From: Bryoerythrophyllum caledonicum
Taxonomy: Eukaryota; Streptophyta; Bryopsida; Pottiales; Pottiaceae
Reading direction: 5' to 3'
DNA length: 64,000 nucleotides
NCBI GenBank assembly: GCA_963971425.1
Contig: OZ020517.1
Span: forward strand, 25,748,668 to 25,812,667
Shown: positions 13,287 to 42,825 of the stretch, piece after piece
Numbering within the stretch: position 1 is the stretch's first letter
Layout of the letters: each line of letters begins with the position of its first letter
Notes under the pieces: model-generated
Told to the model about the DNA's origin: nothing
Databases searched by the model: none
The model's input: only the letters and a program-made list of their open reading frames with translations
Made by a program: the position numbers and the translations under genes

Positions 13287-13675
13287 TACAAACACATGTA
13301 TAAAGACAAGACTCCTTCTCCTCTCCTCCATTGAAACCATGGTTGGTGCAATTTTAGGGGAAGAGAAGAGAAGAAGAAACTCAAGGCTCGAGAAGAGAAG
13401 AGAAGGGAAGAAAGAGGAGGAGGAGAAGAAAGAGAGATGGTAAAACATGACAAAATTCTCCAAAACTGCCCTTTTTAGGCATTCATTAAAAAAATCAGCA
13501 CGCCCACTTTTTTGTACAATGTCATTCCTCCTCGTCCAAGTTTGGTATACACTTAGTGAGAGGTCCAAGGGCTTTAAAAATTACATTTTTCTAAAGTGTG
13601 ACCATGGAAGTGTGACCATGGAATTAATCCATTTTCCTTGGTAATGGTTCTTGGTTTGTAGTGTAAACCGCCCCT

Positions 13676-19195: not shown

Positions 19196-19784
19196 GCTAA
19201 CAACAGATTGGAATATTGGCTTTGCATGACATTGGTTGTTTACCTGATAAAAACAGAAGAAATAATGAGGTTAGGATGATGATGCACCTTTATTGGCGGC
19301 CCGTCGACGTAAAAGGACCAAGAGGAATAAGTGAAAAAGATTGAATTAAAACAATCACAATCACTTCAAGGAAGGAGCTTACAAGGTTTGTCATATCGTG
19401 CAAATGATTCTAGTTCATTGCAGAATGAAGAGCCTATAGCAGGCCCACCCTCTTCTTTCCAATAACTTGGAACTAATTTAGCATCTCGTTTGCATTCAGG
19501 GTTGTCTATCGCGACATTGTGACAGTGACGCGTCATCATGACGCGTCGTGTCGTGACGGACCCTCTCGTCACGACACAATAGGGTCAACGTAGGGTCAAA
19601 GACAAGCTTTACCCACACAAGAGGTAACTTAGTTACCTCAGGGTCGACGTGGCTGTCCTAGGTGGCAATGACATCCTACGTGTATATCATCTCGTTTACC
19701 CCTTGTGTAAACAAGCACTACGTATATATCATCTCGTTTAACCCTTGAGTGAAAATTTTGTGAGCTTGCATTTTTTGGCGGACA

Positions 19785-20345
19785 GGCGCGGATGGGGCGC
19801 GGATAGGGACTGTTGATGGAACTGCGGTTTACGGTGCGCGAATGGGACGCGGATGGCACGTAGATTGGGGGCGGGTGGGGGCTACGGATGGGGGCGGATG
19901 GGGCCCAAGAGGGTGCGGATAGGATGCGGACGGGGAGCGGACAAGTACTGCGGGTGCAAGTGTTGCGGATGGTGTGCGGGTTGGGAGCGGATGGGGAGCG
20001 GGTATCGACTGCGGATGAGGAGCGGGTGGGGACTGCGGATGAGGAGCAGGTGGGGAGCGGATGGGGGCGGGTGAAGACTGCGGATGGGGGCGGATGGGGC
20101 CCAGAAGGGTGCGGATAGGATGCGGGCGGGGAGCGGACAAGAACTGCGGACGCAAGTGTTGCGGATGGTGTGTGGGTTGGGAGCGGATGGGGAGCGGGTA
20201 TTGACTGCGGATGAGGAGCGGGTGGGGAGCGGATGAGGGCGGGTGGGGACTGTTGATGGGGGCAGGTTGGAATTGCGGATGGGTGTGGATAGGATGCGGA
20301 TGGGGAGCGGATGGAGGCGCGGACTGCCGTCGATGGGCTGCAAAC
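19785..20345 (+). repeat. GCGGATGG minisatellite array 1
   Basis: Imperfect tandem copies of GCGGATGGGGAGCGGGTGGG-like units, G-rich on the + strand and full of CpG. Larger blocks repeat inside the array: the stretch at about 19870-20010 recurs at about 20075-20200. Long open frames of Pro, His and Ser or of Gly and Arg on both strands are translations of the repeat, not genes. It lies upstream of the DUF7869-like pseudogene, in the C-rich orientation relative to that gene. Confidence 0.85.
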
Positions 20346-20595
20346 TGGTTGCGGTTTAGGCGGTTGTGTGATTGTGGATTGAGTTATTCTGTCTTTATTT
20401 GAGAGGTTTTGAAGGGCAGGATGGGAAGACGAAAACATCGTTTCATAAACACTTTGCCTTTATTCAAAACATCAGGGAAGTCCACGTAGGATTTCTCTTG
20501 TTACAAAAAGGGATTACAAAAGAAGTATACACTTCACACCATTAACAACATCCGACATATCGAGCAAAATATAAGGTCTATGAAATCACAATATA

Positions 20596-22396
20596 CTACT
20601 CATTGCGGAAGAAGTCCCATGAGGTTTCCAGGTTGTAAGGCGATCTTTTCAACATGTCTACCACATGCGTGACGGTGGATCGCTCTAGTGGATCAGGTTT
20701 CAACAACTCATCCATACTTTGCTCAAACCGACGCGACAATGAACTTGGATTTTTGTTCTTCTGGAACAAGCTTGAAGAGCAATCGCGGTTGTAAATCCTC
20801 CTTGCCAAGTACCCCATTGCATACGCCTCAGATCTATGGTTGTGTTTATCCTTTATTCCCATTCTTCTCGGTGATGTTGGCGTTCCGGGCTTGCCATACA
20901 CATGGAATAGCTCAGGGGCCGCATGTTGGTATTTACCTCAGCCGTTGAGAATGTATCACGTCCATGATGCACATGAGTGCCCATGCTAAATATGCCCGAT
21001 TTTTGCGATAAATGCACAATTCTAGACGGGCATCGAGGTCGATTCCAGCACTTCTTAGAATGTCATCCTCATGTTCCTCTTCGTATTTTGAATCAATTCT
21101 CCAAACGGACGCGAGTGAGCCTCCGTTCCACCATAGAGTATATGACTCGTACGTTCTTCTATCGAGAAATTGAATCTTGATTACCCCCGCATGGTCCACC
21201 GGACTTGCTAGCGCCTCGATTGATCGTTTCTCCCGGTTCTTCATCTTCAAATCCTCCTTCATTGTCTTCCCTACGAACTCTATACTTGGTGGAATGCAGC
21301 TCACACCTTCGATGCTCACACGTCGCACAATTCCAAAGCCACCTTCATAGTTCCTCCCATCGAGTCCCTTTATCTCTGCCTCTAATGGGAGCCACACCAT
21401 CCCTTCGCGACCTCTCGTTGCAATTTGTGCGGACAAATCACGTTCAATCGAAGGGACATTTTGACTCACTCTCCCTCGAGGCTTGACTTTCATTACCCCC
21501 TCCTTGAATTTATCTAACTTCACCTTCAATTCTTCCCACCCAGATATCACACGACCTTCTTTTGTTAATACCTTGGCTTGTATCTCCCAAAGCGTTACCA
21601 CGGGGTTAAAAATGGCATTCTGAGTGTATTCCTTTACCCACTCTTTGTAAGAAAAATGGCGTTTGTCTTCGGCAAATGTTTCTTTGTTAGCAACGCCCTC
21701 GACAATTGTTTTCAATCTCTCCCCCAACGATTCCAATCCAGCAGCACCTCGATTCAAGTAGCATCTCTCCAGCTGACCCAAGTCATGGTCTTTATACCAT
21801 GATAATAACTCGGCGACAACCTTGGTCCTGAAAGGCTTGCTCATTTGATCTAGATGAGAGATCCTTTGCCTTTTCTTCCCACGTCCCGAGTCCTCCGAAT
21901 CTGCTGGTCGTTTGCCCCGTCTACGTCCTGTTGCGTCTGAAGGTTCGCTGGGAACTAAGGACTCTGATGGCGTTGGTACCACATTATGTGAAAGTGGTCG
22001 TACCGATGAGGCTCCACGCTCAGGATCAACACTGGAGCCACCTGAACTACGACCTCCAAGGTTTCGATCCCCAACCAAGCTTTCTGATCCTCGAGACCGC
22101 CTAGCTCCACGTCCTCCCCCCATAGATCCTCGTGACCCCCCGAGAGATCCTCGTGTACCTCGTGAATGTGATTGTGATCCACGAGAATTACTTTGTCCGA
22201 GAGCAAAAAATTCTTGGTTCATTCCGACGCCTCGTCTGCTACCTCTCTCGCTTGGTCCACCTCTGCTACCTTGGCCTCTTGCTAAGTTACCACCGCTAAC
22301 ATTGTCAGTAGTTGCAATAGCAGATGCAATTTCCACATGATAAGCTTCATGGAGTTGCATATCTGCATCTTGGTAATGCACCCTGTTGTCAGCCAT
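20596..22396 (-). pseudogene. RG-rich kinase-like protein lacking the catalytic core
   Basis: The main frame (22396-20933, 487 aa) starts MADNRVHYQDADMQLHEAYH. Residues about 35-130 are rich in RG/SRG repeats (GSRGGPSERGSRRG, GGSRGSMGGGRGARRS). A basic stretch, RRRGKRPADSEDSGRGKKRQ, may be a nuclear signal. The C-terminal part resembles a protein kinase N-lobe: YEGGFGIVRRVS as glycine-rich loop and EFVGKTMKED with the lysine. It then reaches MDVIHSQRLR, where a catalytic loop should follow, and meets a stop. In another frame, GKYQHAAPELFHVYGKPGTP (APE-like motif) and MDELLKPDPLERST continue to 20596. The HxD loop and DFG are absent, apparently deleted (about 25 codons) at 20933-20925, so no phosphotransfer is expected. 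It faces the RING gene at 23915 across array 2. Confidence 0.6.
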
Positions 22397-22604
22397 TGTG
22401 TGAAAAAATGTTAACCGGTTATCCAGTGTGCAACGTTTATGTGAGTGAGTCTAGCAAAAAACTGCAAGGGTTTCCCCGCAATTCGTCACTCCAAACTCCT
22501 GTACCGTCGAAACCCGTGCAACGCTGCTCACGCAACAAGGTCTCGGGTTCCCATTGGGCAAGGAGTGGAGGGCAAAAAGTGAAATTGTCAATGGCCTCGT
22601 TGCC

Positions 22605-22612
22605 TTTATATA
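22605..22612 (-). promoter_or_regulatory. TATA box (TATATAAA) of the kinase-like gene
   Basis: GGCCTATATAAAGGC on the minus strand, about 210 bp before the ATG at 22396 and about 35 bp from the edge of the G-rich array. Confidence 0.6.
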
Positions 22613-22646
22613 GGCCCCGACGGGTCGCGAACATTGGAAACCACAC

Positions 22647-23465
22647 GGACGGGTCGCGGACGGGTCGCGGACGGGCCGCGGATGGGCGCGGATTGGGAGC
22701 GGATGGGGATCGATGAGAGCGGATAGGGCACGGATGAGGAGCGTACAGGGACTGCGGATGAGGGCTGCGGATGGTAATTGCTGATGGGGAGCGCGTATGG
22801 AGCGGATGGGTGCGGATATGAAGTGCAAACATGGGGTGCGGGTGGGAGCTGCGGGTGGGGAGCGGATGGGGGCGGGTGGGGAGCGGATGGGGGCGGGTGG
22901 GGAGCGGATGGAGGCGGGTGGTAAGCGGATGGAGGCGGGTGGGGAGCGGATGGAGGCGGGTGGGGAGCGGATGGAGGCAGGTGGTAAGCGGATGGGTGCG
23001 GATAGGCGCGGATGGGCATTGGACAGAGACTGCGGATGGGAGTTGCCGATGGGGAGCGGGTTGGGAGCGGATGGAGGCGGGTGGGGAGCGGATGGGGGCG
23101 GGTGGTAAGCGGATGGAGGCGGGTGGGGAGCGGATGGGGACGGGTGGTAAGCGGATGGGTGCGGATAGACGCGGATAGGCATTGGACATGGACTGCGGAT
23201 GGGAGTTGCCGACGAAGAGCGGGTTGGGAGCGGAAGGAGGCGGATGGGGGTGAGTGGTGAGCGGATGGGGGCAGACAGGGACTGTGGATGGGAGCTGCGG
23301 ATGGGGAGCGGGTGGGGAGCGGATTTAAGCGGGAGAGGAGCGGATGGATGCGGATAGGCGTGGATGGGTGCACATAGGCGCGGATGGGGAGCGAACAGGG
23401 ACTGCGGATGGGAGCTGCGGATGGGGAGCGGGTGGAAAGCAAATGGGGCGGATGGGGGCGGACAT
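22647..23465 (+). repeat. GCGGATGG minisatellite array 2, shared by two divergent genes
   Basis: About 0.8 kb of GCGGATGGAGGCGGGTGGGGA-type units. Blocks of about 150-170 bp recur: GGACAGAGACTGCGGATGGG near 23020 and GGACATGGACTGCGGATGGG near 23184. Runs of three to five G separated by short loops meet the usual quadruplex rule. The array lies between divergent TATA-like motifs at 22605 (-) and 23476 (+). Confidence 0.85.
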
Positions 23466-23475
23466 GGCCGACGTG

Positions 23476-23483
23476 TTTAAAAA
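23476..23483 (+). promoter_or_regulatory. TATA-like motif (TTTAAAAA) of RING gene copy A
   Basis: It sits about 10 bp after array 2 ends. The following sequence (CTGACGCACTTGCCTC, GTTGACGGCG, GTGGTCCTTTTGAGG) is shared with the equivalent region of RING copy B, so the promoter/leader is homologous between copies. Confidence 0.5.
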
Positions 23484-23914
23484 GGAAGAGGAGTTCAATG
23501 TGGCCTCACTCTTTCTTACTCATCAGGACGCCCTGACGCACTTGCCTCTACGTTGACGGCGAGTGTGCGGGGTTTCAGATGGGGAAGTGGTCCTTTTGAG
23601 GTCCAAGATTCTTCCAAGGGGGGGAATTTTTGTCCTCAAACGCAACTGATCAGGTACAAAAGACATCAGATATTCCAAGAAGGGTTTAGGGTCTTAATAC
23701 TCCTAGGTAGCACTATTATGAAGTGCATGATTGGGACTTTATTTCAGCACTACTTTGAAGTGCAAGTAGTTGTGGTAGTTGTTATAGTTGTTTTAGTTGA
23801 GCAATCATTTGGAACTCTCATATCACAATAGATAATATCGCCAAGATAATAGGTTCAAACATAATATTGTTTTGTATTGCGGGAGCCCATAGAGGTTTCC
23901 AATAATTTTCCACC

Positions 23915-26298
23915 ATGCATAGTGGAGGTCGAGTTGTTAGTTCAGCGAAGAAGCTGAAGAGGAACCCTGCGGATTTGGAGCTTGAAGTATATCAAAATCG
24001 TGATATTCTAGGGGAACCTGGATGGGAAAGTGTTTGCGAGCCATGGACTGCCACAAATGCTATGGACTATATTAAGTTTGCGCATCTTGATAGATGGTCG
24101 CCGGAAGAGCTCCACAAGAAACATTGTTCAGCAAAGGCCGTTACATACCGCGACATCAAAGACGTGGATGTGAAGTGGAGGTTCCTCGAGATTCTACGTG
24201 CAATTTCCAACTTGGAGCGATGGCCCAAAAATAATATCCCTAGAAGTATCGCGGCATTAATGTATGCGGAACATCAATTGGGGAAGAGGGTGGATTGGTC
24301 AACGCTACACAAACGTTATTGTGGTGGGAAGATTCTTGGACGCCCCCTTTCTGCAAAGAAACCGGTAGAGATTCCAAGAAAATCCGTTCCTCAATGGTTC
24401 TGCAATAATCCAAGCTTGTTTGACGACCCTGATGAATCATTGCCAGTGGACCGAGAAGCACCTCCTAAACAAAAGAGGAAAGTAGTTAAGAGGACAAAAG
24501 TAGTGGATGCCCTTGAACAATCAATGCACGAGCTTGAAGTCACAGATGTGAGGCAGTCTGGCATCTATGTGAGTAATGAGATTAACGTGGAGTCAATGCC
24601 ATCTCCATTATCTATGGAGGTGACCAATGCGGATCAAAACGAAGCCATTCAGATATCAACAACATGCATGCCGCATGGTACTGTAAGTGACTATGGGGGG
24701 GTTGGCAAAACAGGAAGTGATGATGAATACGAACGACTGGGCGATGCAATCGAAGGAACAAAGGCAATGGTCAGTATTGGTGATTTGCAAGCTCATGCAA
24801 ACCCCAATATTCAGGATACGTGTGTTCAGTTGAAGGCGCAATTACAAGTGCTCCGCGTGGAAATTACAAGATTGGAATGCGATAGGGACGCTGCCGTAGA
24901 AGTTGCATTCAAAGCGTGTGTGCTAGAGTCAGAGAAGGACACCATGCTTGCCGAAATGGCCCTGTTACGCGATGAGCTCGACCATTCCAAGAATGATAAT
25001 GGAAATTATCAAGTTGAAATCGCAAGCTTGAAAAATGAACTAGAAGAAGTCAAAGCACAACATATTACAAACGAGGCGACATGTGCAAATTTCCAACGTG
25101 AGGTGGATGAATTAAAGGCAATTAGTGCAAACGACAAATCAAAGATAAATAAATTGACAACCTTAGTTTTAGAAACCATTGCCGAACGGGAAGAGATGAT
25201 GCTTCTAACGGTGTTTGCAGTGGCACGAGCACGGCAGTATGAGGCGGAATTCAAGAGCATTGTTGCCGAATGGACGTTGGAAAATAAATTGAGGACCCTC
25301 TTGCTCACATCGTGGCCTCTAGAGGAAACTATGTATTTGAAAAGTTGGGACAATAAGGAACCATCGATACAGACGAACAACAATAGCATTGATTGGAAGC
25401 ACATCACAGAAGACGATCATCATTGGAACATCAAGGATGTGCATGACTGTCCGCTAGATATGATGGGGAAGCCGTTGTGGCTAAAACCACATCCAATGAC
25501 ATCCGACGGATTGTCATGTCCTATTTGCGGAAATGCTTGGGGCCCAGAAGGGTGTTTTACGATTGGATCATGTGGCCATTCGTTCTATCCGCAATGTCTA
25601 ATCAAGAGTATGATTCGCTTACGTATGTGCAGTATCTGTAGAGCGCCATTACATCCACGTTTGTATCTGCAATTTGGCATCCAGGATTTCATGCCTAACC
25701 ATTGGGTGTATCACCAAGATGATTATGATTTTGAACTTGGCAACTTCAATGGGCACCCTGTTGAGTGGAGCTGGAAGCACAATATGTCAAAGGCAGAGGT
25801 GTGGCATAAGTTTGGGGGGGGGAACTTGGAAGATGATGCAGAGAAACTGATTCAAGCTGCGAATGAGATGTATCCTGACAACCCGTTTGGGTACGGCATG
25901 AAGATGTTTTTTATCAAACTATGGGATGGCATTGGAATCCTCAGAGGAAGGAGTTGGTGCACGGTTTAGGACCAAAACCATATTACAACTCATCTGGTGA
26001 GCGAGCGGTAGACAACTTGGAACTACGCAGAGCCTATCGTGGAACTCCTCTAGCTGAGAACACCGGTACAGAGGACTTGTTTTGGGAAGAACGCTACCAT
26101 CATAAACGACTACTGGTGGCGGCACTCGATGCCATACTGGATGAAGTTGCCCCGGAGGTAAAGGAATGGCTAAATGGTGGGGACATACCTCGATATTCGG
26201 AAATGGTGATTCGCCATGAACGCCATGGATATGGGACACGGAGTAATGTTCGTGCACAAGGCGGTGACTCCTCCAACCCTTCAAGACCGCAACAGTAA
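23915..26298 (+). pseudogene. Coiled-coil RING-H2-like protein, copy A (one frameshift)
   Basis: The first 684 codons (23915-25969) are open. A conserved N-terminal region (FAHLDRWSPEELHKKHC, DVKWRFLEILRAISN, RVDWSTLHKRY, VPQWF) is followed by a basic linker (PPKQKRKVVKRTK) and a long heptad-rich coiled coil (about residues 302-458). A RING-like domain follows (about 535-580: CPICGNAWGPEG, GSCGHSFYPQC, CSIC). The fifth zinc ligand, His in copy B, is Tyr here. After MKMFF the frame shifts in a T-run near 25908; one more T would restore the frame to 26298 (MGWHWNPQRKELVHG to NPSRPQQ), as in copy B, for about 794 aa. A single-base assembly error cannot be excluded, so the gene could be intact. 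RING proteins usually act as ubiquitin ligases; that is inference here. Confidence 0.75.
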
Positions 26299-29200
26299 TT
26301 TGCCAAGGTTTAGGCAAGGAAACCGGGTAATATGATCGGCAACAGATTCCCCCTTCAATTAGTATATTGGAAAATCCTTGTCCATATTGTTGCCATTATG
26401 GACATAGCCATATAGGTACAATAATTTATGAAGGGATATTTTTGCCTATTTTGAATTTATTAACCCCTTGAGGACCAAGTGTCAACAATGGGCTTTTTGA
26501 AAGTTCGGTCAGGTTCCTCGGGTGTACATTTCCAACATTCCACTTTCAAATTTTTATTGTAGAAGGACATTACTAAGACCTTGATAGGAGAACAATTTTT
26601 CCCTAAATCCGCCACTTAATGAAAAATTTAATAGGGTTTCCAATTTCAAATGGCAGAGCGGGTACTTCGGGCAACGAAAAAAAGTTCTAATAGGACACTC
26701 TATTGAATGTGAGTTTTTCACACATTGTCAGGCAAGGTACCAAAAAAACTTCTACTTTTCTAGAAGAAGAAGAAGAACGCCGATCTCCGAAGGAGGCCGG
26801 CGTGAATAAAGTGTATGTTCGATCCACTACTAAGACCATGCCCACTACTAAGACTATGACCATTAATTTCTTTAATAGAATCGTATATGCCATAGCCAGC
26901 TTTTTCTTTGCGCTAGTTTCCCCGACTAACTTGTTTAGGTGGTTTGAGAGAGCCATCGATATTATAACTGTATGCCGGGTCAAAATTTGGTGAGGTTAAG
27001 GTTTGGTAGTTTGGAAGGGGTGGGGGTGTTACAAGGTAATCTAATGTATTGTTGATGTAGTTTAGTTATGCCCATTTTTTGCCTCGGTTTACCGAAGTTT
27101 GTATACTTGATTATAGGGCTATTTTTGTGTATAGGTGGCGTATGTTTAGGGTTGTTGCTATGGCGTTGAGTTTGTGAAGTTGTTCTGGGGTGCCAAGGGT
27201 TTTATTTTGGTGGTGGGCACATATTATTTGTAATGTAGATGGTTCAATTTGTGGCTTTTTTAGCTCGGGTGGGATAGTGGGTTCTTCGTATAAAGTAAGT
27301 CTGCTTCAAATAATGCAATGACATGGGAGCCTAGAAATGGGCTTGATTTTTGGTTAAAGTTTTGGTACCAATTTATGTCCGGTGTGATAATGAGTGTAAT
27401 GTGTGGTGAGATTCGTTTTTGACCGCAATGCGGACCCAATGTAGTGCTTGTTGAGTTTCCTCCTCATTGTGAGGGTGAGCTATACCTTTACCGGGCCATT
27501 TGTGGTCAAAGGCCTTACCCAAGGACCCAAATATTAATCTATTTCAAATGGTGAATAAAACTTTTTTAATTTGGTGGAACATGTGACGGGGGAAGAGAAG
27601 TATGATTGTTCGATGTTGAAGGATGATATTAAGGAGTCTAGAATGAGTGTGGGTATTGTGTATTGTGCATTTTTGCGGGGATTATTTTTTTGAATACGAT
27701 ATTTATATCTTTGATATAGCCAAATTAGTTCGATTTCAAATGGTTGAGTTGTTGGTTCGATGTCTGTAGGAGTCTGTAGTTTCAAGTTATATTGGTTCCA
27801 TAGCCATTGGACAAAGGTATCTTGTATAGGTATTTTGTATATTGTTGGTATCTATAAGTTTTAAATGTTCATGGTGTATGATGTTATTAATAGGATATAT
27901 GTTGGGATTTTTGGGGATGTTTGTTGAAAGGGGGTGGTATGGGTGTGATGGGTTGGGGGGATGGATTGGTGGTAGGTTGGTAGTTCTTGGAAGGATGTTA
28001 TTGTTGGTGGTGACAAATGGGTCTTGGAGTATGTAGGAGTGTGGGTGTATGTTGATCGTAGTAGTGCATGTGGTGGGGCATGTTGGATGACAAAAAAGTT
28101 TTTTGGCAATATGTAAGGCATTTTTTATTAGTTTGGATGGGGTGAAGTGGAAGGTTTTGAAGTCCTCATTATTCATGATGTGTGTGCCATTTGGTAAAGT
28201 AATTTGTTTTAGTTTGAAAATAAGAAATGAGAGGATTTTTTGTAAGAGTTTTTGGGAGAGTTGGGCGTTGAGTGTGTTATGGTTTAGTGTTTCTTGATGC
28301 CATAATATTTCTAATGATGTTTGATCAAGGATCTACTTTTCTACATAAATCTTAGAGATCTTTTCATATTCAAATTTTCTTTTTTTCCACAACAATATGT
28401 GGTGTAAGCCTTCCTATTTAACATTCGGATTATCAATTTACAACATATTTACTTCACAAAAAAATTAAAGCATGAATTGGCAAATTTTGAACCTCAATCC
28501 TTGCACAACTGTTTTGAATATGCTACACTCATTTGCCTCTAAAAATTGGTGAATAAGGAACTAATATCATGCTGAATATGATGGTAATGGATTTGGACCT
28601 TTAATAGTGAAAAAAGTTGACACCAAATGAAGTCATCCGCGCTGATCCACTAAACGTAGGGAAGAAAATGAACCATTTGCTTGACTTCAAACACTATAAT
28701 CTTTCAATCCGTGCGGTCAAAGTTTATGAAATTTTGAGAGTATGTTGCTTAATAAGTCTTAATTGAGATCCTAAGGTCAAAACTAGTAATATTATTTCTT
28801 TTCACATCGTTACAAACTATTTGTCTTTAGTAGAAAATTGCATTTCATTCCTAGTCAAAAAATTTGCACATTGCCACACATTGTCTGGCAAGGAATCCCA
28901 AAAAACTCTTCTTTCCACCCATCCTTGTAACTTGTTCCAATGACAAGGACATGGAATCCCGGTGACATGGACAATGAATTCCAATGACGAGGGAGAGGGA
29001 GAGGGAGTGTGAGGGAAATTAAATATTATGCTCTTTTAAACAAAAAACACAAATAAAGAAGAAGAGAAGGACGAATTTATTCTGAATATACAAAAGTACT
29101 TTTGCTATGTTGAATCTAATGAAGGTAGTTCTAGTTATGCACATGACATACATTTCTTTGCAATACAAATTAGTGCACCTATGATATTAATGCACCAAAA

Positions 29201-29428
29201 GAAGCCTTTGAATCAATACCTTCAACACACCAAAGGACACATGATTTTACACAGAATATGACAGGTAGATATATTCATTGCAACACTGTACACCAAAAAA
29301 AAATCAGAAAATATCATCTAACGTTTTTCCTAAATATTTAATCGATGTTGAGACTATAGGCGCTCTATTGTTCGCTATCCGCATTGAGATTCACTTCCGC
29401 AGCATCTCAAGGCATGCCGCATTATTTA
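26299..29428. other. Region between RING copies; strongly G/T-skewed segment 27000-28320
   Basis: No recognisable gene. The + strand of about 27000-28320 is rich in G and T and poor in C. The longest open frames there are on the minus strand (28176-27787 and 27785-27534, in different frames) and encode Pro/Thr/Asn/Ile/His-rich low-complexity peptides without known motifs. A similar segment occurs on both sides: CACACATTGTCAGGCAAGG near 26720 and CACACATTGTCTGGCAAGG near 28877. Confidence 0.4.
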
Positions 29429-31555
29429 TCATGGTTGCGACGAGGATGCATCAGTACCGCGCGTTTGGTTTCCATGAGAAGCATTAGGCACTTCCATTCC
29501 CCGTCTCTGTAGGTTTCTCTCACGTTCTAGCCAAGCCTTGACTTCTGGGGAAATATCGTTTAATATAACGTCTAGTGCCGCGGCCCTCAGTAGTGCATGA
29601 TGGTATGTTCTTTCTTCAAGTAGATCCTCTTCTGCACTTCGAGCTTCTTGGATACGATCCAAACGCCGATATAATCGGTTGAATCCTACAGTGGTGAGCG
29701 CCTCCTCTCCCGCTGAGTTGTAATGCGGTCCGTTTCCCATTCCCGGCAATAACGTCATTCTCTTTCGATCGTAATGCCACCCCATTACGTTGTAGAAAAA
29801 CATCTTCAAGCCAAAATCCGGTGGTTGATTTGGATACATGCCCTCTACCGCCTTCATTAAATTCTCTGGATCATTTAATGTGCCAGCTTCCTCATTTGCA
29901 GCAATAAGTTGTGCGGATGAGACGTTGTATCTCCAATTCCACGTGACAGGTTGTCCGACATCAACGCCAATGTCAAAATCTGGGAAGTCTTCTGGGCGAT
30001 ACACCCAATGTCTTGGCATGAAATCCCGAAGGCCAAATTGAAGATACAAGCGGGCATAATAAGGCGATTTGCAAACCGTGCACGTACGCTTTTGTATCAT
30101 ATCCTCGATTAGACATTGAGGGTGGTACAAATGACCACATGATCCAAGCGTGAAGTACCCTTCTGGGCCCCACGGATTTTGGCAAATGACACACCGCGAT
30201 CCATCATTGGTCTTCTCATCCACGTGGCTCCATATTTTATGGACATCTCCGATGCCACCAACCGTCTCGTGAATATTCCATCAGTGGTCCTCTTCGACAA
30301 TACGCCCCCAGTCAATGCTACCGTTGGCCTTAAACACTGGTGGATCTATGTCTTCCCAATTGCTTGGATACATATCATCTAACGTTGGCCAAGACGTGAG
30401 TAACAATGTTCTCAGCCTACCATTGGTTGTCCATTCAGCAGAAATCTTTGCCAACTTTGCCTCGTACTGCTTCGCCTTTCTCGAAGCTAATACCGTTCCT
30501 AGCATCATGGTATCCCGCTCATTGTGGAGTTTGCTAACATCTCGTTGCAATTTAGTAACATCCGCCTCGTATTTCGATTTTCGAATGTTTGCTTCTTGTA
30601 ACTCGATGCACAACTGGGCCATGTTGGCAACCAAATCGTTCTTCTCTGCTTCCAACGTCAATGTTTTCATCGCCACTTCTCTTGCACGCTCCTCCATGAA
30701 TGCCTTGTACGCAGAAAATTCGGCATTTAATTCTTGGTATCGTTGCGCCGTGCCATCTATGATATTGATGCGCTCGATACCATGACCCACTACCTCGGTT
30801 TGTCCAAGCCCGGGAAGTTCACTTCCACCGCTAATTGGCGTGTTCGACTCCACATCCATTGCATCGGTGTTGTGGATGCCAAGTTCATCATATAACTCGA
30901 ATGGTAAAACCGCCACCTCTCGAGCTTTTGTTGCAGTAGCTCGTCTCTTTGGCAATTCTCGATCCGGTGGCAACGGTTAGTCCGGTGGATCAACCAAGCT
31001 ACTGTTGGTGCGGAACCATTGTGGAACCGGGTTCCTCGGAATGTCAATGATCGGTTGCTTTGCGGAAAGTAGCGGGCCAAGAAACTTCCCAACATTGCCA
31101 CCCGCGGTTATCGGTTGGTGAATTGTTGACCAATCAACCCGCTTGTGCAACACACACTCCGCATACACCATGGCTCCTATCCTCCTCGGAATGCTATTTT
31201 TGGGCCAACGTCCTTGGTGAGAGATGGCTCGTAAAACCTCCAAGAACCTCCACTTCAAATCCACGTCGGTAATGGCATTCCACGAGAGTTGTCTGTTGCG
31301 GCAATGCTCTTCGTGAGATTCCTCCGGGTACCACCGATCGAGATGCGCAAAACCAACCAGGTTGAAGGCCTGCTGACATGTCCATGGCTCTGGCACATCT
31401 TCCCATCCATTGTACGCCAATAGTTCCGTGTTTCTAAAAATATCCATCTTTAAAGGCACCCCTTTCTTCGGTTTCTTTGAGAAACCAACTTCCGTGCTTG
31501 GCGCATTTGGCCTCCTTCGGCCCGCATCATCTCCACCACCGCCTTGCATTGCCAT
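29429..31555 (-). pseudogene. Coiled-coil RING-H2 protein, copy B (two nonsense codons)
   Basis: Diverged homologue of copy A in the opposite orientation, about 708 codons in one frame with two stops: TAA at 30977-30979 (after SSLVDPPD) and TGA near 30284 (after GRIVEEDH). N-terminal blocks match copy A (FAHLDRWYPEESHEEHC, DLKWRFLEVLRAIS, RVDWSTIH, VPQWF). The coiled coil lies at about 30740-30460. The RING-H2 is complete: CVIC, CGHLYHPQC, CTVC, giving the pattern C-x2-C, C-x-H-x2-H-x2-C, C-x2-C. The C-terminal region (GWHYDRKRM, YHHALLRAAALDVILNDISP) also matches. Leader, TATA-like motif and G-rich array are homologous to those of copy A, so the whole transcription unit was duplicated or moved. 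Confidence 0.8.
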
Positions 31556-31980
31556 TTTTTTCCTCTAAAATCTCCACCACCACGAAATGCTTCTAGTCGC
31601 TATCCTATACTGATTGACTAAGCCAGTAAACTAACTATTCTAATATGAAAACCCTAGCTGTAACTAAACTCCCATAAACACCCTAAAACTAACTGCACTT
31701 CAAAATAGTGCTAAAATAACCCCAAGCATGCACTTCAAAATAGTATTGCGTAGGAGTGCATACAAATGTTTCTAAAAAAACCGGCCTTCGATAGATCTCT
31801 GACGTCTTCGGTACCTGTTCTGTTGCCTTTGAGGACAAATTCCCCCTTGAGGGAATCAATGTCCTCAAAAGGACCACTTTCCCACCTGGAAACCCCGCGC
31901 ACCCGCCGTCAACAAGGAGGCAAGTGCGTCAGAGTGCCCGAGAAAGTGGGAAAGAGTAACCTTGTTTTACTTCACCCTCT

Positions 31981-31988
31981 TTTTTATA
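31981..31988 (-). promoter_or_regulatory. TATA box (TATAAAAA) of RING gene copy B
   Basis: Minus-strand CGGTATAAAAAAGAGGG about 430 bp before the ATG and directly beside array 3. The downstream leader shares CTGACGCACTTGCCTC and GTTGACGGCG with copy A. Confidence 0.6.
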
Positions 31989-31994
31989 CCGTAG

Positions 31995-32545
31995 CCGCGG
32001 CCCATCATCCGCGACCTGTCCGCACCGGTCCACTTGGCCCATCCGCGGCCCGTCCCGAACCGTACGCTCCCACCCGCTCCCCATCCGCGCCCGTTTGCTG
32101 CCCATCCGCTCCCCACCCGCTCCCCATCCGCGCCCCATCCGCGCCCGTTCGCTGCCCATCCGCTCCCCACCCGCTCCCCACCCGCTCCTGTCCGCTGCCC
32201 ATCCGCGTCTCGTCCGCATATCCCAGCCTGCTCCCCATCCGCGCCCGTCCGCTGCCCATCCGCGTCTCCTCCGCATCTCCCAGTCCGCTCCCCATCCGCG
32301 CCCGTCCGCTGCCCATCCGCGTCTCGTCCGCATATCCCAGTCCGCTCCCCATCCGCGCCTTGTCCGCTTCCTAGTTCCCCTCATCCGGCCCCCATCCGCC
32401 CCCCGTTCCCGGCCCATCCGCGCCCATCCGCGCGCATCCGTGCCCCGTTCGCTTCCCCGTCCCCCTCCCATCCGTACCCATCCGCTGCCCATCTGCTGCC
32501 CATTCGTGCCGCATCCGCTTTCGAGTGTGCAACCCAGTCCGCTTC
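31995..32545 (-). repeat. GCGGATGG minisatellite array 3
   Basis: Same family as arrays 1, 2 and 4 but C-rich on the + strand (CCGCTCCCCATCCGCGCCCG units), so the G-rich strand is the coding strand of RING copy B, as in copy A. A block of about 65-75 bp recurs three times (GTCTCGTCCGCATATCCCAG near 32205 and 32320, GTCTCCTCCGCATCTCCCAG near 32264). The long open frames here are repeat translations. Confidence 0.85.
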
Positions 32546-34288
32546 CCATCCGCTTCCACTTCTAAGTATTTGTGGGCAAGAATAGTTTTGTTTTGGTATG
32601 TGCTTGCATTGACAATGTGTCGCAATTTTAGAAATTGACAATTTTGAAGATCTCCAAAAACAATTCCAAGCTTGGTGCTTCAAGATTATACGAGGATGGA
32701 AAATAAGAAATGAAGACTGAAAACCCGAATGGTAAAAAGACCGCTTATCCAGTACCTTAGTATAAATAGCATATTTAATGTTTGAATTTTTAACATCTCC
32801 CTAAACATACGCAAATAAAGCTCTTCCATCATACAAAGATGGCAAATTAGGAAGTAACAAAGTCGACACCGAATGGTTGAGAACAAGACTAATTCATTAA
32901 TCAACAAATATTGTATAATCTTCTAGGCAATGCACATAGCATGAGAATTGCCGCCGAATACACGAAGGGGTAAATACCACCGCCAAGAGCTTGCCGACGA
33001 GCACATGAAGTTCCTCACATCCCATCAAGGCACCTTAAACATCGTACTCCTCCTCCCCAAACCACATGTGAAATTGCTAATCACTTCAAGAATCCACATT
33101 TATATATATATATATATATATATTTAACAAGCAACCATTTCTAGGCAGTAATTTTGGCAAACTGATTCCAACTGACTAGGCGTGTGCTCAGTTTGCTCAG
33201 GTTCGTTTTGTGACCACCCCCTCTTGACTATCTCAATTGTTGAATGCACGAAGCATTTTTCATCTTCCAATATATTGCCATGTTTCAAGAGTCGTGCTCA
33301 TGTGTGTAAAGGTCTCTAATGCTCTGACTTCCATAGCTTCTAGCTTTCTAGCTCCATTGTCGGAACATTCGGTTCCTGGTTCAATTATCACCACGTACGA
33401 TGTATACTCTTAGAAAATTGAGGGATGAGGTTGGATTGACAATATGGTGATTTCGGTGTTAATAAAACATGGACATGGAGGTTGCCATGTGGAGCTTGTT
33501 CCCATGCGAGATCCTTGAGCAAGTGCCTGCGTTTGTGACGGTCCCTCCCACGTGCAAGGACCGAGTCGTATGCGAGGCCTGGGACCGCCTCATGAAGAAG
33601 TTGTTCTTGTTTATTCTTGTAATGTTTAACGCATTGAGGATAACATGTCATTACAATAGTTCAAAACAATGGTGCATAAACTCGAGGTCCAAGAATAAAA
33701 ACCCAAATGGCCAATACAAAGAAGAAGTTTCACAATTTAGGAAAAATAAATTAAAAAAACACATGAAGATCTTGGAGTTTTATATGGAAGTGGGGAGAGG
33801 TTTTGTTGGTATTGGCTGGATAGAATATGTCAATTTGACAAATATGTCAATTTGACAAATGTGTCAAATTATAACAATTATACAATTTTGAATACATCCC
33901 CGAAAAAATTGAGCTCAAAGCTCATAGGGAATACGAATTCGTAAAAATAAGAAATTAAGAAGGATAATCCAAATGGTTAAAAAGACTAGTTAACCGACAT
34001 TTTGTATGATTTTCATTTTTAAAAAAAATGGGAATTACAAACGTCTCTAAAAACACACGTAGATAAAGCTTTGTAATCATACAAAGCTGAAAAATAGGAA
34101 GTAACAATGCAAATCCGAATGGTTAAAACATCTTTGAATCATTAAAATATACTACCACATAATCTAGCAACGTACACCTTAAACATCTATACTAATAAAT
34201 TGCTAAGAACCCTTTTGATATAAATTTAAAATATTATAAATAGACCTCGTCTTACGTGTATTGGGAAATTTAGACATCCCACTAGGAC
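32546..34288. other. AT-rich intergenic region
   Basis: No gene supported. It contains an (AT)n microsatellite at about 33099-33124 and a short TGTCAATTTGACAAA tandem repeat at about 33828-33870. A small GC-richer island at 33470-33610 opens a 128-codon frame (33469-33855, +) that resembles no family I know. Confidence 0.4.
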
Positions 34289-37200
34289 TTAAGTTCGCAC
34301 TCGAACTGTGGGGTCGTTTTCTTCTATGCATCGTGGATCCACATCGGACTCGTCTGTGCTCTCTTCGTCATCGGATTGAGGAGTACCACTTCTCAATTGT
34401 AAGTTGTCGTTCCTAGTAATGACCAACCTCCTTGTTGGACGAGATCCCTCGGCGTCAAGTAACCTATCATCATCCAAATTGGGTCTTCCGTCTGATGGGT
34501 CGTAATCTTCACTAGTAAATGGAATTGTACTACCTTGATTCCTTCGACGTCTCTTCGTTCCTCGTGTAGTTCTTCGCCGTCTATTATTATTTAGGATGCT
34601 AGTGGAAGCTGCTCTGCAATGTGGAAGAACTGTAGGTACGTGGACAACCACATTGAGGTCTACATCCGAGGAGGAAGCCATTCCTCTTAATACTATTCCA
34701 GACCCCCTCCCACCACTTTGCACGACATCGCCTTGTTGATTTTGACAAGCAAGAGGTTGCCTTCGCACGCTAGGAAGTTGAACGCTACTAAGCTTGTTGG
34801 CTTGACGACAATTTTGTCCCATTCCATTGCTGGGACGATCGTTATGAAGGGCTACCAATGAAGCACCAATCCCCCGTGTAGTTATTGCACCGGTTCTATC
34901 CGCAATTACATGACTACGGGTCTCCGGCCGATGTGGTATTCCAACTTGGCAAGACGCTTCGATCTCTGTGGTTCCGGCATTCCCCATAACTTCATCAAGG
35001 GGCACGGTTACCCTTCCTATGATTGAAGTCGGATTACATTGTGGACTTGAATTGCAATTGCGAACCGACCTCGAAGGCGTTAAGGAGATACAACCAACCG
35101 TTGTAGGGACCTCCACTTCTTGTTGATTCAAGATATATTGCCCTTCATCACCAAATGATAGCGAATCAGTTTGAGGTTGGGAAGGCAAGTCAACGTTTGC
35201 AGGGATCGCCAAGTTCTGTAGCCCCCCTTCGTGGTCACGCCAAAGTCCTTGACCAGCACAAAGTTGTCCAAACAACGGCCCATCATCATCTCCACTCGGG
35301 TTCAATGGACCTTGAACATGTTGTTGTGCTGCCTCGACTTTGTTGAAATAAAAAATTCCTATGTCTCCACCTCCACCATCACCATCAGAGTTTTGACCAT
35401 CCGAGTCCCACACATCCTCGCCCACACGACGACCACCACCACCGCCATCATTGGAATCTCCACTATTCAAATCCAAATCCAAATTGTCTTCGTGTATGTC
35501 AAGATTACCTTCTTCGTCATTCTCGTTAGGATAACATCCCTCCTCATTTGCATCGTCAGGATCTTCTCCGTTGCTTTCATCATCGGAATGCACACCATTT
35601 AACTCAAGCCATTGACCAACCCTTGTCCCCCTTTGATGCCCTAGGAGCCTAGAATTTGTGTAAATGTACACGAGGTCCTCCGCTCAACTATGTTTAAGGC
35701 GATTGCAGGACTTGTTGTGTACATAGGAGTACATGCTCCAATTGCGTTCGCATGCTGATGAGGAACACACTTGAGCAAGTATACGTCTTGCAATTATCTG
35801 CAATGCCTTTGCGCCACCTCCCATTGCATCCCACCACTCATGGGGCAATATATTAAGCACATTTGGATCCATCGAATCTACAAATGATCCTCTATTTTCA
35901 ATGAAGTCTTGGTATTGGTTGAAGACCCTTCCAAAATCTTCCTCACTTGAAACTAACTTTCGAAGGACTTGATTTAAGATTGGTCTTGAATGCTCATTCT
36001 CATGCAAAAGGGCCCATCCTCGCAAAGAAGGGTTTAACATAGCTTCCGTCCAATGAAGGTCAGTTACCATAAGCCCCCACCTCGTGTTAAAGGCATCTAG
36101 TGCCCGTGTTGCCAATTCTTGCCCCAATTGGAACGGGGCCCTGATAAACCCTTGAACATGGATTTCCAAATCATGCATAACCTTCCATGCAGCGCCCATA
36201 GCAGGAGCATTGCCGTCAAATACACGAAGGGTACGTACCACAGGCAATACCATATACTGAAAATTCACACATGTATCCCAAAACCCGTCGGAGCGTATCA
36301 CCTGCCGTGCAAACAAGCCTTTAATATGTGTAGCTGGGGCTTTTGTCCGCAATTCCGCCATGAAAGCATGCCATGCGTCATCAACCACCATTCTCTCTAG
36401 GGCTTGGCGAACTTGGAGGAGGCGTTCAATCATGATGAAGTTGGTTGCAAATCGTGTCTCATTGGGCATACGAATAGCAAGATCTGGTGAAAGCCTTCGG
36501 AAGATTGCTTGTGGAGCGTGGTGGTTCTTAATGAATAAACAAATAACCCTAGCCTTCCTCACAGTCCTTTTCACCCAATTTTCTTTGCCCCAATCTTCCA
36601 GTAAAAGGTCCAAGCAATGAGCAGCACATCCTTGAACATAGAGATGGGGAATCGCTTGCATGATGTCACGGCAAGCGGACGCCATGACTGGAGCGTTATC
36701 GATGCATACCTGGACAACATTTTGGGGCCCAACTGTTTGTAAAAACGGTTGGATTTGAGAAGCAACGTAGAAGTGGTCCTTATAATTTCCCGATGTATCG
36801 ATGGTGCCCAGGAAAACATCCCCTTTCGTGCCTGACTGAACAACATTTAGCAATGGCCGATTCTGAACGTTGTCCCAACCATCACTACATATTGTTACTC
36901 CATACTTTGATATAGAGCTACTCATTTTCTCTTTGATCCCCCTTTCTAGATTTGCTCTCTTGTTTGTCAACAACTTCGTACGAACGGCATTGTAGGACGG
37001 TGGGTTGTATGCCGGCATTCGTACGCGTGCAGTTTCACGAACCGCTTTTTAAAAAGCAGGGTGCCTAATGATATTAAATGGAATGTTTGCTTCGTAAAAA
37101 GCACTAGACCAAACCCTATCCAAAAGTTGTTTTGCAGAAGAGTTGAACCCCTCGGTCAAAGAAAGCTGTCGTAGCTCTCTAGGTTCAGTCTCTATCCGTG

Positions 37201-37581
37201 TCGGTTCCACGTCACCAGTGCTTTGCAAATTTTGAACTTGCTCCACGTCATTTTTCTGAGACAATGATAATAAAGGTTCCACCCGAACTTCATCCTCGCC
37301 GGCTCTGTGAAAGGATAAATTGTTGGCAACATGAGTACGATCCGAGACACCCCCATCACATTCTTGAACAACACACGCACATGTGGAGGCACCATCCTAC
37401 ACACTTGAACATCACGTCCTGCCTCGTTACGAGGACGGTACCCCATGTGGGACAACATCATGTCCGCTCTATAGGACATGGTGTAAGAACAAAACCGACA
37501 TTTCACTTGTCGTGCAGATCTTGAAGAAGTGAGACCCATGTCTTCGTACCATAGATCCCATACAGAATTCCGACGCGGCAT
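34289..37581 (-). pseudogene. hAT-type transposase with 430-residue acidic/basic C-terminal extension
   Basis: Starts MPRRNSVWDLWYEDMG with a BED-type zinc-finger region (VKCRFCSY). A frameshift near 37370 leads to the body. A TAA lies after FNIIRHPAF (37049). Then comes the open core 37018-35684 with a DUF659-like start (RMPAYNPPSYNAVRTKLL). hAT catalytic motifs follow: CSDGWDNVQ (first Asp), VCIDNAPVMASA (second Asp) and SSSACERNWS (Glu in the dimerisation region). A TGA after NRLKHS (CGA expected) separates AEDLVYIYTNSRLL and a further long frame (35671-34289). That tail has Asp/Glu/Asn-rich and Gly-rich stretches, then RRRRTTRGTKRRRRNQG, a likely nuclear signal, and another acidic end. 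hAT proteins usually end soon after the dimerisation block, so the tail is unusual. With three lesions the copy is inactive. Confidence 0.8.
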
Positions 37582-37725
37582 CGCGTAGCAAGAATGAAAG
37601 TGCCACTAAGGGCTCCTCAAACCTTCCTCAGCAATGGCGTCTCATGCAATGCATTCTTGTACAAAGAATCTAAGGTCTTGAAACGCAATAAGCGAGAATA
37701 AGTAAGGTCACCCTAGGAAGATAGA

Positions 37726-37733
37726 AATTTATA
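37726..37733 (-). promoter_or_regulatory. TATA box (TATAAATT) of the hAT gene
   Basis: Minus-strand CCAGTATAAATTTCTATC, about 145 bp before the ATG at 37581 and about 60 bp inside the edge of array 4. Confidence 0.55.
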
Positions 37734-37789
37734 CTGGTCTTCGTATGGAGCATGCGAACGGTTGGGCGAGGATGAGGCAGGGTCCAGCG

Positions 37790-38505
37790 GACGTAGCAAG
37801 CGGACCGGCAAAGGACCTTGGGCGGATGGGGGCGGACAGGGCCTGATAGGAATTACGGATGAGGGCGGGTAGAGAGCGGATGGCGGCGGATGGGGAGCGG
37901 ATGGAGGCGGATGGGGACTGCGGATGGGTGCGGATGGGGTGCGGAAGGGGGCGGATGGAGACTACGGATGGGGAGCGGAAGGGCGGATGGGTGCAGGTGG
38001 GGAGCGGATGGGGGCGGGTGGGGACTGCGGATGGCACGCGGATGAGGAGCGGAAGGGCGGATGGGGACTGCGGATGGTGTGCGGATGGGGTGCGGAAGGG
38101 GGCGGATGAAGACTGCGGATGGGGAGCGGATGGGGGCGAGTGGGGACTGCGGATGGCACGCGGATGGGGAGCGGAAGGGCGGATGGGTGCGGGTGAGGAG
38201 CGGATGGGGAGCGGATGGAGGCGGATGGGGACTGCGGATGGGTGCGGATGGGGTGCGGAAGGGGGCGGATGGAGATTGCGGATGGGGAGCGGAAGGGCGG
38301 ATGGGTGCGGGTGGGGAGCGGATGGGGCCGGGTGGGGAGTGCGGATGGCACGCGGATGGGGAGCTGAAGGGCGGATGGGGACTGCGGATGGTGTGCGGAT
38401 GGGGAGCGGAAGGGCGGATGGATGCGGGTGGGGAGCGGATGGGGCGGGTGGAAACTGCGGATGGCACGCGGATGGCACGGATGTAGGCGCGGATGGGGAT
38501 CGGAT
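37790..38505 (+). repeat. GCGGATGG minisatellite array 4
   Basis: About 0.7 kb, G-rich on +. Units such as GGGGACTGCGGATGGCACGC and AGCGGAAGGGCGGATGGGTG recur in blocks of about 120-190 bp. It lies upstream of the hAT gene with the C-rich strand as coding strand. Open frames on both strands here are repeat translations. Confidence 0.85.
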
Positions 38506-40529
38506 TTGGATATCGTCATGACACAATAGACAACCTTGTTTGCATTGTATTTAATAATATTGGAAATCATGCCATAGGCCTGAACCGTGTGAGGCCTAGG
38601 TCGAAGTATTTCCATATTTCTATGGCATCCATTCACATGTCCAATCTTTGCATCCTTCTTGTAATTGAGGTAGCAAGACTTTGAAATCCCTTGAATGCGT
38701 TATCAAACAACTTCGGAGACGTCGACACCAAAAGGGTGATATACAACTTGCGGCACCTACTAGGTACAAAATGAAGTTGACCCTAAATTGCATAGACCAT
38801 CTTCCTTTGATCCTTGAAGCTTGAAGAGTAAAACTTATGCTAGATCTGAAGTATATCATCCCAAGGAAACGATTGGCAATACCATTGAGGACAACATTGC
38901 TTTGAATTAACAAAACAACAAGACTTGTCAAGTTCACGAGACTCAACAACTTCCAGGTAGAGCCTTGTCCTTCAAATGGAGTTTACAATGCAAATCTCTA
39001 TACAAGTACTCCCTCAGATCCGTCTTGATCGTCTGCCAGCGGTTAGTTGTTAGAGCATTTGCAATAGTAGGTTGTTGCAGTTCGTAGAGTGAGTATTCCT
39101 CCGGATAGCACCTAGTTGTAGCTAAATGTACCCAAAGTATCCGCTCCAGATTCGTTCCCACAGAGACCTATGGTTTCTTCCCTAAATGATAAGTACAACC
39201 TAACTAACTATGACACTCTCATCTACAGGTTAGCTTTCCTATTCATCCCTTGATCTACCATCCGGATCCTTCCAAATTCCGGAGTTCCTACTTTCAGCTT
39301 CCGGATCCTTCCAGATGCCGGACAACTTCAGACGGAGTTTCTTCCGGAGTTTTTAAACAAGTGGCTGGGTGCCATTGATCCTATTTTGTGTAAGTGGCCG
39401 GATTTCCCACTGTCTTGTGACTTAAAGTGGCTAGACATCCTCTGCCCCGAAACTTAAAGTGGTTGGACACCCACTCTTCCTACTCCGCTAATTGGTAGTT
39501 GATTTGTTGCGCTGGACTTACGCTCTCACATCATCCGGATGGCCTTCCAGATGGGGTCACATAGAGGTTGATCCGGACTACAACGACATTCCGGTTGATA
39601 CTAAAGTGGTTCTACTAAATGAGTGTTGTTGGTTTGTAAATAGACTTCCTTCTAGACATACACATCAGGCTTTTTCCTCTATCGTAAGGGGAAATTCCGG
39701 CTGCATCCGGAATCCGGGTTCACACGGATATTCCGTGCCCTAGGAGCTACGAGACTCACCTTGCAGTACACTCCTTCCCCCTCCTGGCTACTTGCGGTCC
39801 CTGTGGATTGTCAGGTCTCTACCAAACCTCTCCTACAGCTCTTCCGAGCGATCTCCCAATGCAAGCCCCAATCGGTTGTTCTAGTTGCAACCCTTGCGAC
39901 ACTCACACAGAAGAACTTAAATCACAATACATCAGCCACAATGGATCTGTTCCCTCACAGCAAAGAAAACTCAATCACCACAAGTTCAAGAAGAGAAAAT
40001 ATGATAGATGGAAAATACTCTTCATGAGAGAAAACAAGATGATGAGCTGACTAAAACTCATCTATTAAGTACTAACTAAATTCCTAAATCTAAAAGCCTA
40101 CCTATCTGCTTGAAATCCGGGAAATCTTATCCTAAAAGGTAAAAAGGATCTTATCTCTAAAAATCCGGATTTCAAATCTCATATCCGAAATTTATGGATC
40201 TGAGATCCGGTTTTTCCGCTTCTATTTAGTAAACCAATTTAGGGTTTTCTTTAGCCTAGGATTTGGTGGCCGGGTGCAACCCTAAGCCCCATCGTTAATT
40301 GCTACTAAACTTAATTGACTAAAGACCCTAACTACGGAGTAACCTGGTTCTTCTTCCTAAGACTTCGATGCTTAGGGATTCCGTCTGCTACGGCCGTACT
40401 AGCCTCTGGCTGTTCCGGAGTAGAAGCCGGTGGTTCCGATATAGACTCGGGCGCTTTATCCTTTGGTCCGGAAGGCGTTTCCGGATCTTCCGCTACTGGT
40501 AGCACGGTCTGCGGGGCAGTTGACCGGAC
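38506..40529. other. Intergenic or element flank rich in CCGGA
   Basis: No coding sequence recognised. From about 39240 onward TCCGGA/TCCGGAT recurs at high density, a feature shared with the ORF and flank at 40530-42830, so this probably belongs to the same element. The open frames at 39492-40050 (+) have no known motifs. Confidence 0.35.
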
Positions 40530-42470: not shown

Positions 42471-42825
42471 GAGAATATGAAGACAGAAGGCGCAAGGAAG
42501 CAAAAGAGAGTGGAGGGCGCAGAAAACGACAAAAGAGAATGACGGCGCCCTACTTTGGCAGACGCATTATATATCTGGCACGATATACAAATACCGTTGG
42601 GGGTCATGATGACGGTTCCGGATCCGGATATCGTCCAGTCCGGAAAAGTCGGTTCCGGACTCCACCATGCTCCGGTTTCCAGACCTCCGGAAAAAGTGTC
42701 GGAACTGTTCGTTTGAAGGATGCCGGATCAGCATTGAAACCTTATTTCTACTTAGGACCTATTTGTGTTAATAAAGCAAAGCTAACTACCTAATTTTTTA
42801 AATTTTCTCCCATTTCTTTCCGGAT

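What the first reader, a model, noticed from the sequence alone, without database searches (positions are those of the whole stretch)
19785..38505. Same G-rich, quadruplex-prone array sits beside TATA motifs of unrelated element genes
Four GCGGATGG-type arrays of 0.55-0.82 kb (19785, 22647, 31995, 37790) each lie directly upstream of a gene start. The genes are the DUF7869-like, kinase-like, RING A, RING B and hAT genes. TATA motifs lie at the array edge (22605, 23476, 31981, 37726, and a weaker one near 19720). The genes share no homology apart from the RING pair, and array orientation differs between them. A shared promoter module, acquired or traded between elements, would explain this. The dense CpG and G-runs could keep chromatin open or be targets for silencing.
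Basis: partly seen in the sequence, partly recalled or inferred. Interest (0 to 1): 0.8.

Follow-up and report, generated by a model that had tools for sequence, protein, structure and literature searches.

The report
Repeat arrays of a 19-kb transposon
The four G-rich repeat arrays are parts of one large plant-type jumping gene of about 19 kb: some sit just inside its ends, where such elements usually keep the landing sites for their own moving enzyme, and others sit beside the promoters of its genes.

Summary
The four arrays are real but are not a promoter module of unrelated elements. They belong to one 19,042-bp hAT-type DNA transposon at window 19497-38538, with terminal inverted repeats (CARGGTTGTCTAT...) and a perfect 8-bp target-site duplication, TTTGCATT. 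On contig C1 the array order and orientation recur, with similar spacing apart from apparent insertions. Two further copies have both ends and perfect 8-bp duplications; a third (e) lacks its left terminus. The element carries a protein kinase, two paralogous RING-like genes and a hAT transposase; dN/dS against two copies is 0.40-0.60. Array A1 is subterminal and faces no element gene start; DUF7869 lies outside the element. A4 is both subterminal and the hAT promoter flank. A2 and A3 abut TATA motifs of kinase/RING A and RING B. TATA and leader stretches are 85-98% identical between copies, no more than the element's average; arrays are 67-92% identical with many indels. Two TIR hits of a related subfamily carry a GCGGACTG-type array starting at the same distance from the end. 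Best reading: transposase-binding subterminal repeats, re-used beside internal promoters for self-regulation. The binding is inferred.

The parts
19489..19496 (.). 8-bp target-site duplication, left copy TTTGCATT
   Evidence: identical to 38539-38546
19497..19523 (+). left terminal inverted repeat CAGGGTTGTCTATCGCGACATTGTGAC (inner limit not sharply defined)
   Evidence: exact pattern hit C4:25768164
19780..20330 (+). array A1: left subterminal GCGGATGG-type array; no element gene starts beside it
   Evidence: A1-type arrays also at the left ends of copies b, c, d
20596..22396 (-). protein kinase gene; this copy lacks 164 nt that hold the catalytic loop and is frame-broken there
   Evidence: copy a fragment matches Pkinase E 1.9e-9
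22603..22613 (-). TATA motif of the kinase gene (CTATATAAAGG)
   Evidence: identical in copies a and e
22646..23470 (+). array A2 between the divergent kinase and RING A genes
23473..23486 (+). TATA-like motif of RING A (GTGTTTAAAAAGGA)
23531..23914 (+). RING A 5' leader (inferred); its stretch 23563-23762 is the part of the locus most like RING B
23915..26241 (+). RING A gene (zf-RING below Pfam cut-off), frame broken near 25910-25970
29429..31555 (-). RING B gene, paralogue of RING A, two in-frame stops
31556..31945 (-). RING B 5' leader (inferred) with a long inverted repeat in 31775-31895
   Evidence: (measured there on 31553-31945)
31978..31991 (-). TATA motif of RING B (CGGTATAAAAAAGA)
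31995..32560 (-). array A3 upstream of RING B
35684..37605 (-). hAT transposase gene (DUF659 E 1.2e-34, Dimer_Tnp_hAT E 1.5e-8), in broken frames; 34289-35683 is a further ORF downstream
37724..37735 (-). TATA motif of the hAT gene (AGTATAAATTTC; copy e keeps TATAAATT)
37820..38510 (+). array A4: right subterminal array and upstream flank of the hAT gene
38512..38538 (-). right terminal inverted repeat, read inward CAAGGTTGTCTATTGTGTCATGACGAT
   Evidence: exact pattern hit C4:25787186-25787205
38539..38546 (.). 8-bp target-site duplication, right copy TTTGCATT

Best explanation
Window 19497-38538 is one 19-kb hAT-type DNA transposon with four recognised genes: kinase, RING A, RING B and transposase. 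The GCGGATGG arrays are its subterminal repeats, most likely arrays of binding sites for the element's own transposase. They lie just inside both ends (A1, A4), where bound protein would help bring the ends together. The same arrays abut the TATA boxes of the internal genes (A2, A3, and A4 for the transposase gene), so the same protein could switch or dampen the element's own genes. SHOWN: one element with ends, target-site duplication and recurring copies; arrays at both ends and beside TATA motifs; coding constraint between copies. INFERRED: which protein binds, that binding serves transposition, and that it regulates transcription. The window copy itself is decayed (broken frames), so it probably makes no working transposase.
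For: TIRs and 8-bp TSD at 19497/38538. Copies b (C1:9077722-9096901) and c (C1:37967299-38004884) have TIRs at both ends and perfect 8-bp TSDs TTTTGGAT and CATCGAAT. Array order and orientation recur in 5 C1 groups, 3 of them with all four clusters listed; A1-A2 is 2.86-3.00 kb in 4 of the 5 and 3.00 in the window, A3-A4 5.62-5.85 kb in those 3 groups and 5.89 in the window; exceptions are larger spacings, apparently insertions. The 19-mer array pattern has 288+259 hits against 0+0 for the reversed control. Both TIR hits picked because no GCGGATGG cluster lay near them carry a subterminal array of GCGGACTG-type units whose first unit is 278 bp from the end, against 270-281 bp in five GCGGATGG left ends. 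The hAT gene carries DUF659 and Dimer_Tnp_hAT. dN/dS against copies a and e: kinase 0.44 and 0.51, RING A 0.60 and 0.45, RING B 0.42 (e), hAT 0.40 (e); at most 1.4% of bootstraps reach 1, except RING A against copy a (8%). Precedent: AAACGG subterminal repeats bind Ac transposase (PMC3260210, passages read); TNPA binds Spm/En subterminal repeats and can regulate its own activity (PMC2613891, passages read).
Against: No binding, transcription or methylation data. No DNA-binding domain was recognised in the transposase N-terminal piece. Arrays point the same way at both ends (inward at the left, outward at the right), so they are not mirror images like the TIRs. Between copies, TATA and leader stretches (85-98%) are no better conserved than coding DNA (95-96%) or the non-coding DNA beyond A3 (97%), and arrays are worse (67-92%, large indels), which also fits neutral drift. 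The two GCGGACTG ends are 95% identical to each other, so they are one subfamily, not independent cases. Copy e lacks its left terminus, and no A4 cluster of copy a is in the list. Five of 28 C1 array clusters are unassigned. All four genes of the window copy are broken, and four of the 12 compared gene pieces of copies a and e hold a stop.
Confidence: 0.62

Rival explanations
1. The arrays are upstream activating arrays for a host transcription factor, kept because they drive the element's genes; the terminal array A1 is a relic or a promoter for read-through into flanking DNA.
For: Close placement next to TATA motifs at A2, A3 and A4 that are kept in the copies read; unit spacing of 10-11 bp puts sites on one helical face.
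Against: A1-type arrays recur at left ends with no element gene start facing them, and a related TIR subfamily has its own variant array at the same distance from the end, which fits end recognition better.
Confidence: 0.2
2. The arrays are neutral minisatellites: CpG-rich units that expand by slippage and are carried passively within a repeated element.
For: Rapid turnover with 55-261 gap columns per array between copies; higher-order repeats of 54-196 bp within arrays.
Against: The same unit type occupies four separate places in the element, each just inside an end or next to a TATA motif, and recurs at these places in other copies; the first unit keeps its distance of 270-281 bp from the left end even in a subfamily with another motif.
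Confidence: 0.15
3. One reading: a promoter module acquired or traded between unrelated elements.
For: Over their best 200 bp RING A and RING B leaders are 76-82% identical, more than their coding regions (45-73% per 100 bp), with synonymous sites near saturation (pS 0.72); this could reflect exchange within the element. The rest of the leader is only 54-67%.
Against: All four arrays lie between one TIR pair with one TSD, and the order recurs in other copies. DUF7869 is outside the element.
Confidence: 0.03

Closest known systems
Ac/Ds (hAT) subterminal AAACGG repeats
   Same: short TIRs and a repeated motif just inside both ends that the transposase binds; element families that share TIRs but differ inside (PMC3260210, passages read); that Ac is a hAT element is recalled
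   Different: 19 kb rather than 4.6 kb; three extra genes; dense 0.55-0.8-kb arrays of 10-11-bp units instead of hexamers in about 200 bp; the same arrays beside internal promoters
En/Spm and soybean Tgmt* (CACTA) subterminal repeats with TNPA
   Same: subterminal repeats bound by an element protein that can regulate the element; a 20.5-kb member is known; subfamilies differ in repeat motif (PMC2613891, passages read)
   Different: TIRs start CAGGG/CAAGG, the TSD is 8 bp rather than 3, and the transposase is hAT-type
Large cargo-carrying DNA transposons in general (recalled, no call)
   Same: a multi-gene mobile element with accessory genes under coding constraint
   Different: no recombinase or capsid match in the eight ORF pieces of the element scanned with Pfam (not every ORF was scanned); cut-and-paste hAT ends

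Membership tests
hAT superfamily | transposase with hAT dimerisation domain | tested here: met
   Dimer_Tnp_hAT E 1.5e-8 and DUF659 E 1.2e-34, both above curated cut-offs
hAT superfamily | 8-bp target-site duplication | tested here: met
   perfect in 3 of 4 copies in which both end regions were read: TTTGCATT (window), TTTTGGAT (b), CATCGAAT (c); copy e lacks its left terminus (about 105 bp) and its right-flank 8-mer was not found at the other side
hAT superfamily | short TIRs beginning CA(R)GG | tested here: met
   CAGGGTTGTCTAT / CAAGGTTGTCTAT; 253+272 pattern hits at up to 2 mismatches against 3+3 in the control; that CARGG is usual for hAT is recalled
hAT superfamily | BED-type DNA-binding domain in the transposase | tested here: inconclusive
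   no Pfam domain above cut-off in the N-terminal piece 37192-37605, which is frame-broken
hAT superfamily | DDE catalytic residues in the RNase H fold | not tested
   no alignment to characterised transposases was made
CACTA (En/Spm) | CACTA TIR start and 3-bp TSD | tested here: not met
   TIR starts CAGGG/CAAGG and the TSD is 8 bp
protein kinase | Pkinase domain with catalytic loop | tested here: met
   copy a fragment Pkinase E 1.9e-9, HNDLSPNN and DWG motifs; lost in the window copy, whose pieces match no Pfam family at the thresholds used
RING finger E3 ligase | zf-RING domain above curated cut-off | tested here: inconclusive
   RING B 27.7 bits and RING A 20.9 against zf-RING_5 cut-off 27.9
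promoter-module function | transcription starts at the listed TATA motifs | not testable with these tools
   no RNA data

The most novel reading that the evidence does not exclude
The element is a self-contained regulon: one element-encoded DNA-binding protein reads the same array at both ends and at every internal promoter, linking transposition and gene expression, while the kinase and two RING-type proteins tune transposase activity or host silencing. Subfamilies would escape each other by co-evolving a new array motif and a new binding domain (GCGGATGG against GCGGACTG).
Probability: 0.3. Interest if true: 0.75.

Novelty: new variant of a known kind. Interest (0 to 1): 0.52.

Why it matters
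A hAT element of 19 kb with a kinase and two RING-type genes that look constrained between copies seems unusual. My three searches aimed at such an element (open-licence PMC papers only) listed 1, 0 and 2 papers, of which I saw titles and abstract openings; none is about such an element. That is weak evidence of absence. Arrays shared by the ends and the internal promoters give a clear, testable case of a transposon that may control its own genes through its transposition sites.

Tried and rejected
Rejected: (1) A promoter module shared by unrelated elements: all four arrays lie inside one TSD-bounded element. (2) A1 as the DUF7869 promoter: DUF7869 is outside the element, and the TATATA is not in copy a. 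(3) Quadruplex as a selected feature: strict G4 counts are close to dinucleotide shuffles. (4) The element's right end beyond 39 kb: 39073-42867 is a separate 3.8-kb repeat family. (5) L056 as a short non-autonomous copy: it is a palindrome, flanks included, with a run of N in the middle, so assembly error or masking is likely; not used.

Led nowhere: structure prediction of the kinase-like ORF from a single sequence (mean pLDDT 35.5), not searched further; a phmmer search of the same ORF against PDB (one chance-level hit); literature searches; whole-genome protein searches for RING A, part of RING B and hAT, and later DNA or pattern searches (not completed). So the total copy number, and whether RING or kinase genes exist away from arrays, are unknown. 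The 28 C1 clusters come from the listed first places only (C1 up to 43.26 Mb); hits beyond were counted but not seen. A sixth partial group (C1 27.54-27.57 Mb, A1-A2 about 3.0 kb by hand) was left out of the spacing table, whose copy positions are mid-points of listed hits. The dN/dS comparison uses two copies only and drops matches under 70% identity (paralogues) and codons with a stop.

Full report
What was checked. The four arrays are there as described: 10-11-bp units around GCGGATGGGGA, GC 0.67-0.72, CpG-dense. The 200 kb of flanks read hold no other cluster of three or more units (5,200 bases read N). Genome-wide, a 19-base array pattern has 288 forward and 259 reverse hits, against none for the reversed control. 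The quadruplex statement is not supported beyond base composition for strict motifs; looser two-G motifs exceed shuffles in A2 and A4.

What it is. The listed hits on contig C1 form groups with the window's own order: A1(+), A2(+), A3(-), A4(+), or its reverse. Five groups were tabulated; three show all four clusters, two show three (for copy d the list ends there; for copy a no A4 hit is listed). A1-A2 is 2.86-3.00 kb in four groups, 19.19 in one, 3.00 in the window; A2-A3 is 9.19-9.64 kb in three groups, 10.87 in one, 27.93 in one, 9.22 in the window; A3-A4 is 5.62-5.85 kb in three groups, 5.89 in the window. The larger spacings look like insertions. Comparing copies placed the ends. Window 19497 begins CAGGGTTGTCTATCGCGACA; the complement strand at 38538 begins CAAGGTTGTCTATTGTGTCA; TTTGCATT flanks both. 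Copy b (C1:9077722-9096901, 19,180 bp) and copy c (C1:37967299-38004884, 37,586 bp) have the same kind of ends with perfect 8-bp duplications TTTTGGAT and CATCGAAT. Copy e has the right terminus but lacks about 105 bp of the left one. The transposase carries DUF659 and the hAT dimerisation domain. This is a hAT-type element of 19 kb.

Its genes. From the left: a protein kinase gene (the catalytic loop is present in copies a and e; the window copy lost 164 nt there; Pkinase E 1.9e-9 in copy a), RING A, RING B and the transposase. RING A and B are paralogues, 38.6% identical over 669 aligned residues. All four are broken in the window copy, and copies a and e also hold stops in some pieces. Between copies dN/dS is 0.40-0.60; bootstraps at or above 1 are 0.2-1.4%, except 8% for RING A against copy a. 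So the accessory genes seem to have been under constraint while the element spread.

Promoters. TATA motifs lie 12-42 bp from the array edge at the kinase, RING A, RING B and hAT genes (edges set by eye). Between copies the TATA regions are 85-98% and the leaders 95-98% identical; coding pieces are 95-96% and the non-coding stretch beyond A3 97%, so the promoters are not specially conserved at this short distance; the arrays are 67-92% with 55-261 gap columns. At the much longer distance between RING A and RING B, 200 bp of leader are 76-82% identical, although synonymous sites are near saturation (pS 0.72) and coding DNA is 45-73% per 100 bp; the rest of the leader is 54-67%. That part of the leader is therefore constrained or has been exchanged within the element. 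It holds an inverted repeat whose fold is better than shuffles in RING B (z -2.34) but not in RING A (z -0.54).

Why subterminal repeats. A1-type arrays recur at left ends with no element gene start facing them. The two TIR hits picked because they had no GCGGATGG cluster nearby (L059, L060) carry 14 and 13 GCGGA units, 7 of them GCGGACTG in each, and no GCGGATGG or GCGGGTGG unit; the first unit is 278 bp from the end, against 270, 270, 270, 280 and 281 bp in five GCGGATGG left ends. The two are 95% identical, so they stand for one related subfamily. An array at a fixed place inside the end thus seems general in this TIR family, with a motif that differs by subfamily. This parallels Ac, whose transposase binds subterminal AAACGG repeats (PMC3260210, passages), and Spm/Tgm, whose TNPA binds subterminal repeats that differ between subfamilies and can regulate the element (PMC2613891, passages). 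Membership in hAT rests on the transposase domain, the 8-bp TSD and the TIR; binding is inferred.

Limits. Of 28 C1 array clusters listed, 15 were tied to the family by sequence, 8 by spacing only, and 5 were not examined (hand count).

Noticed in passing
39073-42867: A separate 3.8-kb repeat family next to the element; 22 other copies covering at least 3.4 kb at 79-86% identity are listed (a capped list).
   Followed up: partly
49345-53763: A 5S rRNA gene, then a G-rich GAGAGG-type array and a shortened LSU rRNA match on the same strand; looks like a partial rDNA unit with linked 5S.
   Followed up: no
20939-20940: The window kinase gene lacks 164 nt that copies a and e have and that encode its catalytic loop.
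   Followed up: yes
23563-23762 and 31775-31895: Part of the RING leaders is better conserved between paralogues than the coding regions and holds a long inverted repeat.
   Followed up: partly
32561-34124: Between A3 and the hAT gene lie a stretch resembling hAT coding sequence (32905-32986 against 36167-36247) and a 270-bp direct repeat (32609-32878, 33852-34124).
   Followed up: no
9618-10229 and 11245-12282: Other DNA transposons: a DDE_Tnp_4 transposase ORF and a Tc1/mariner-like one (DDE_3, HTH_Tnp_Tc3_2).
   Followed up: no
10778-11169 and 12899-13290: A 392-bp inverted repeat, 98.7% identical, flanking the Tc1/mariner-like ORF; probably its long terminal inverted repeats.
   Followed up: no
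L056 (C2:9236480-9237420): A palindrome of right TIR plus array units with a run of N in the centre, flanks mirrored too; likely assembly error or masking.
   Followed up: partly
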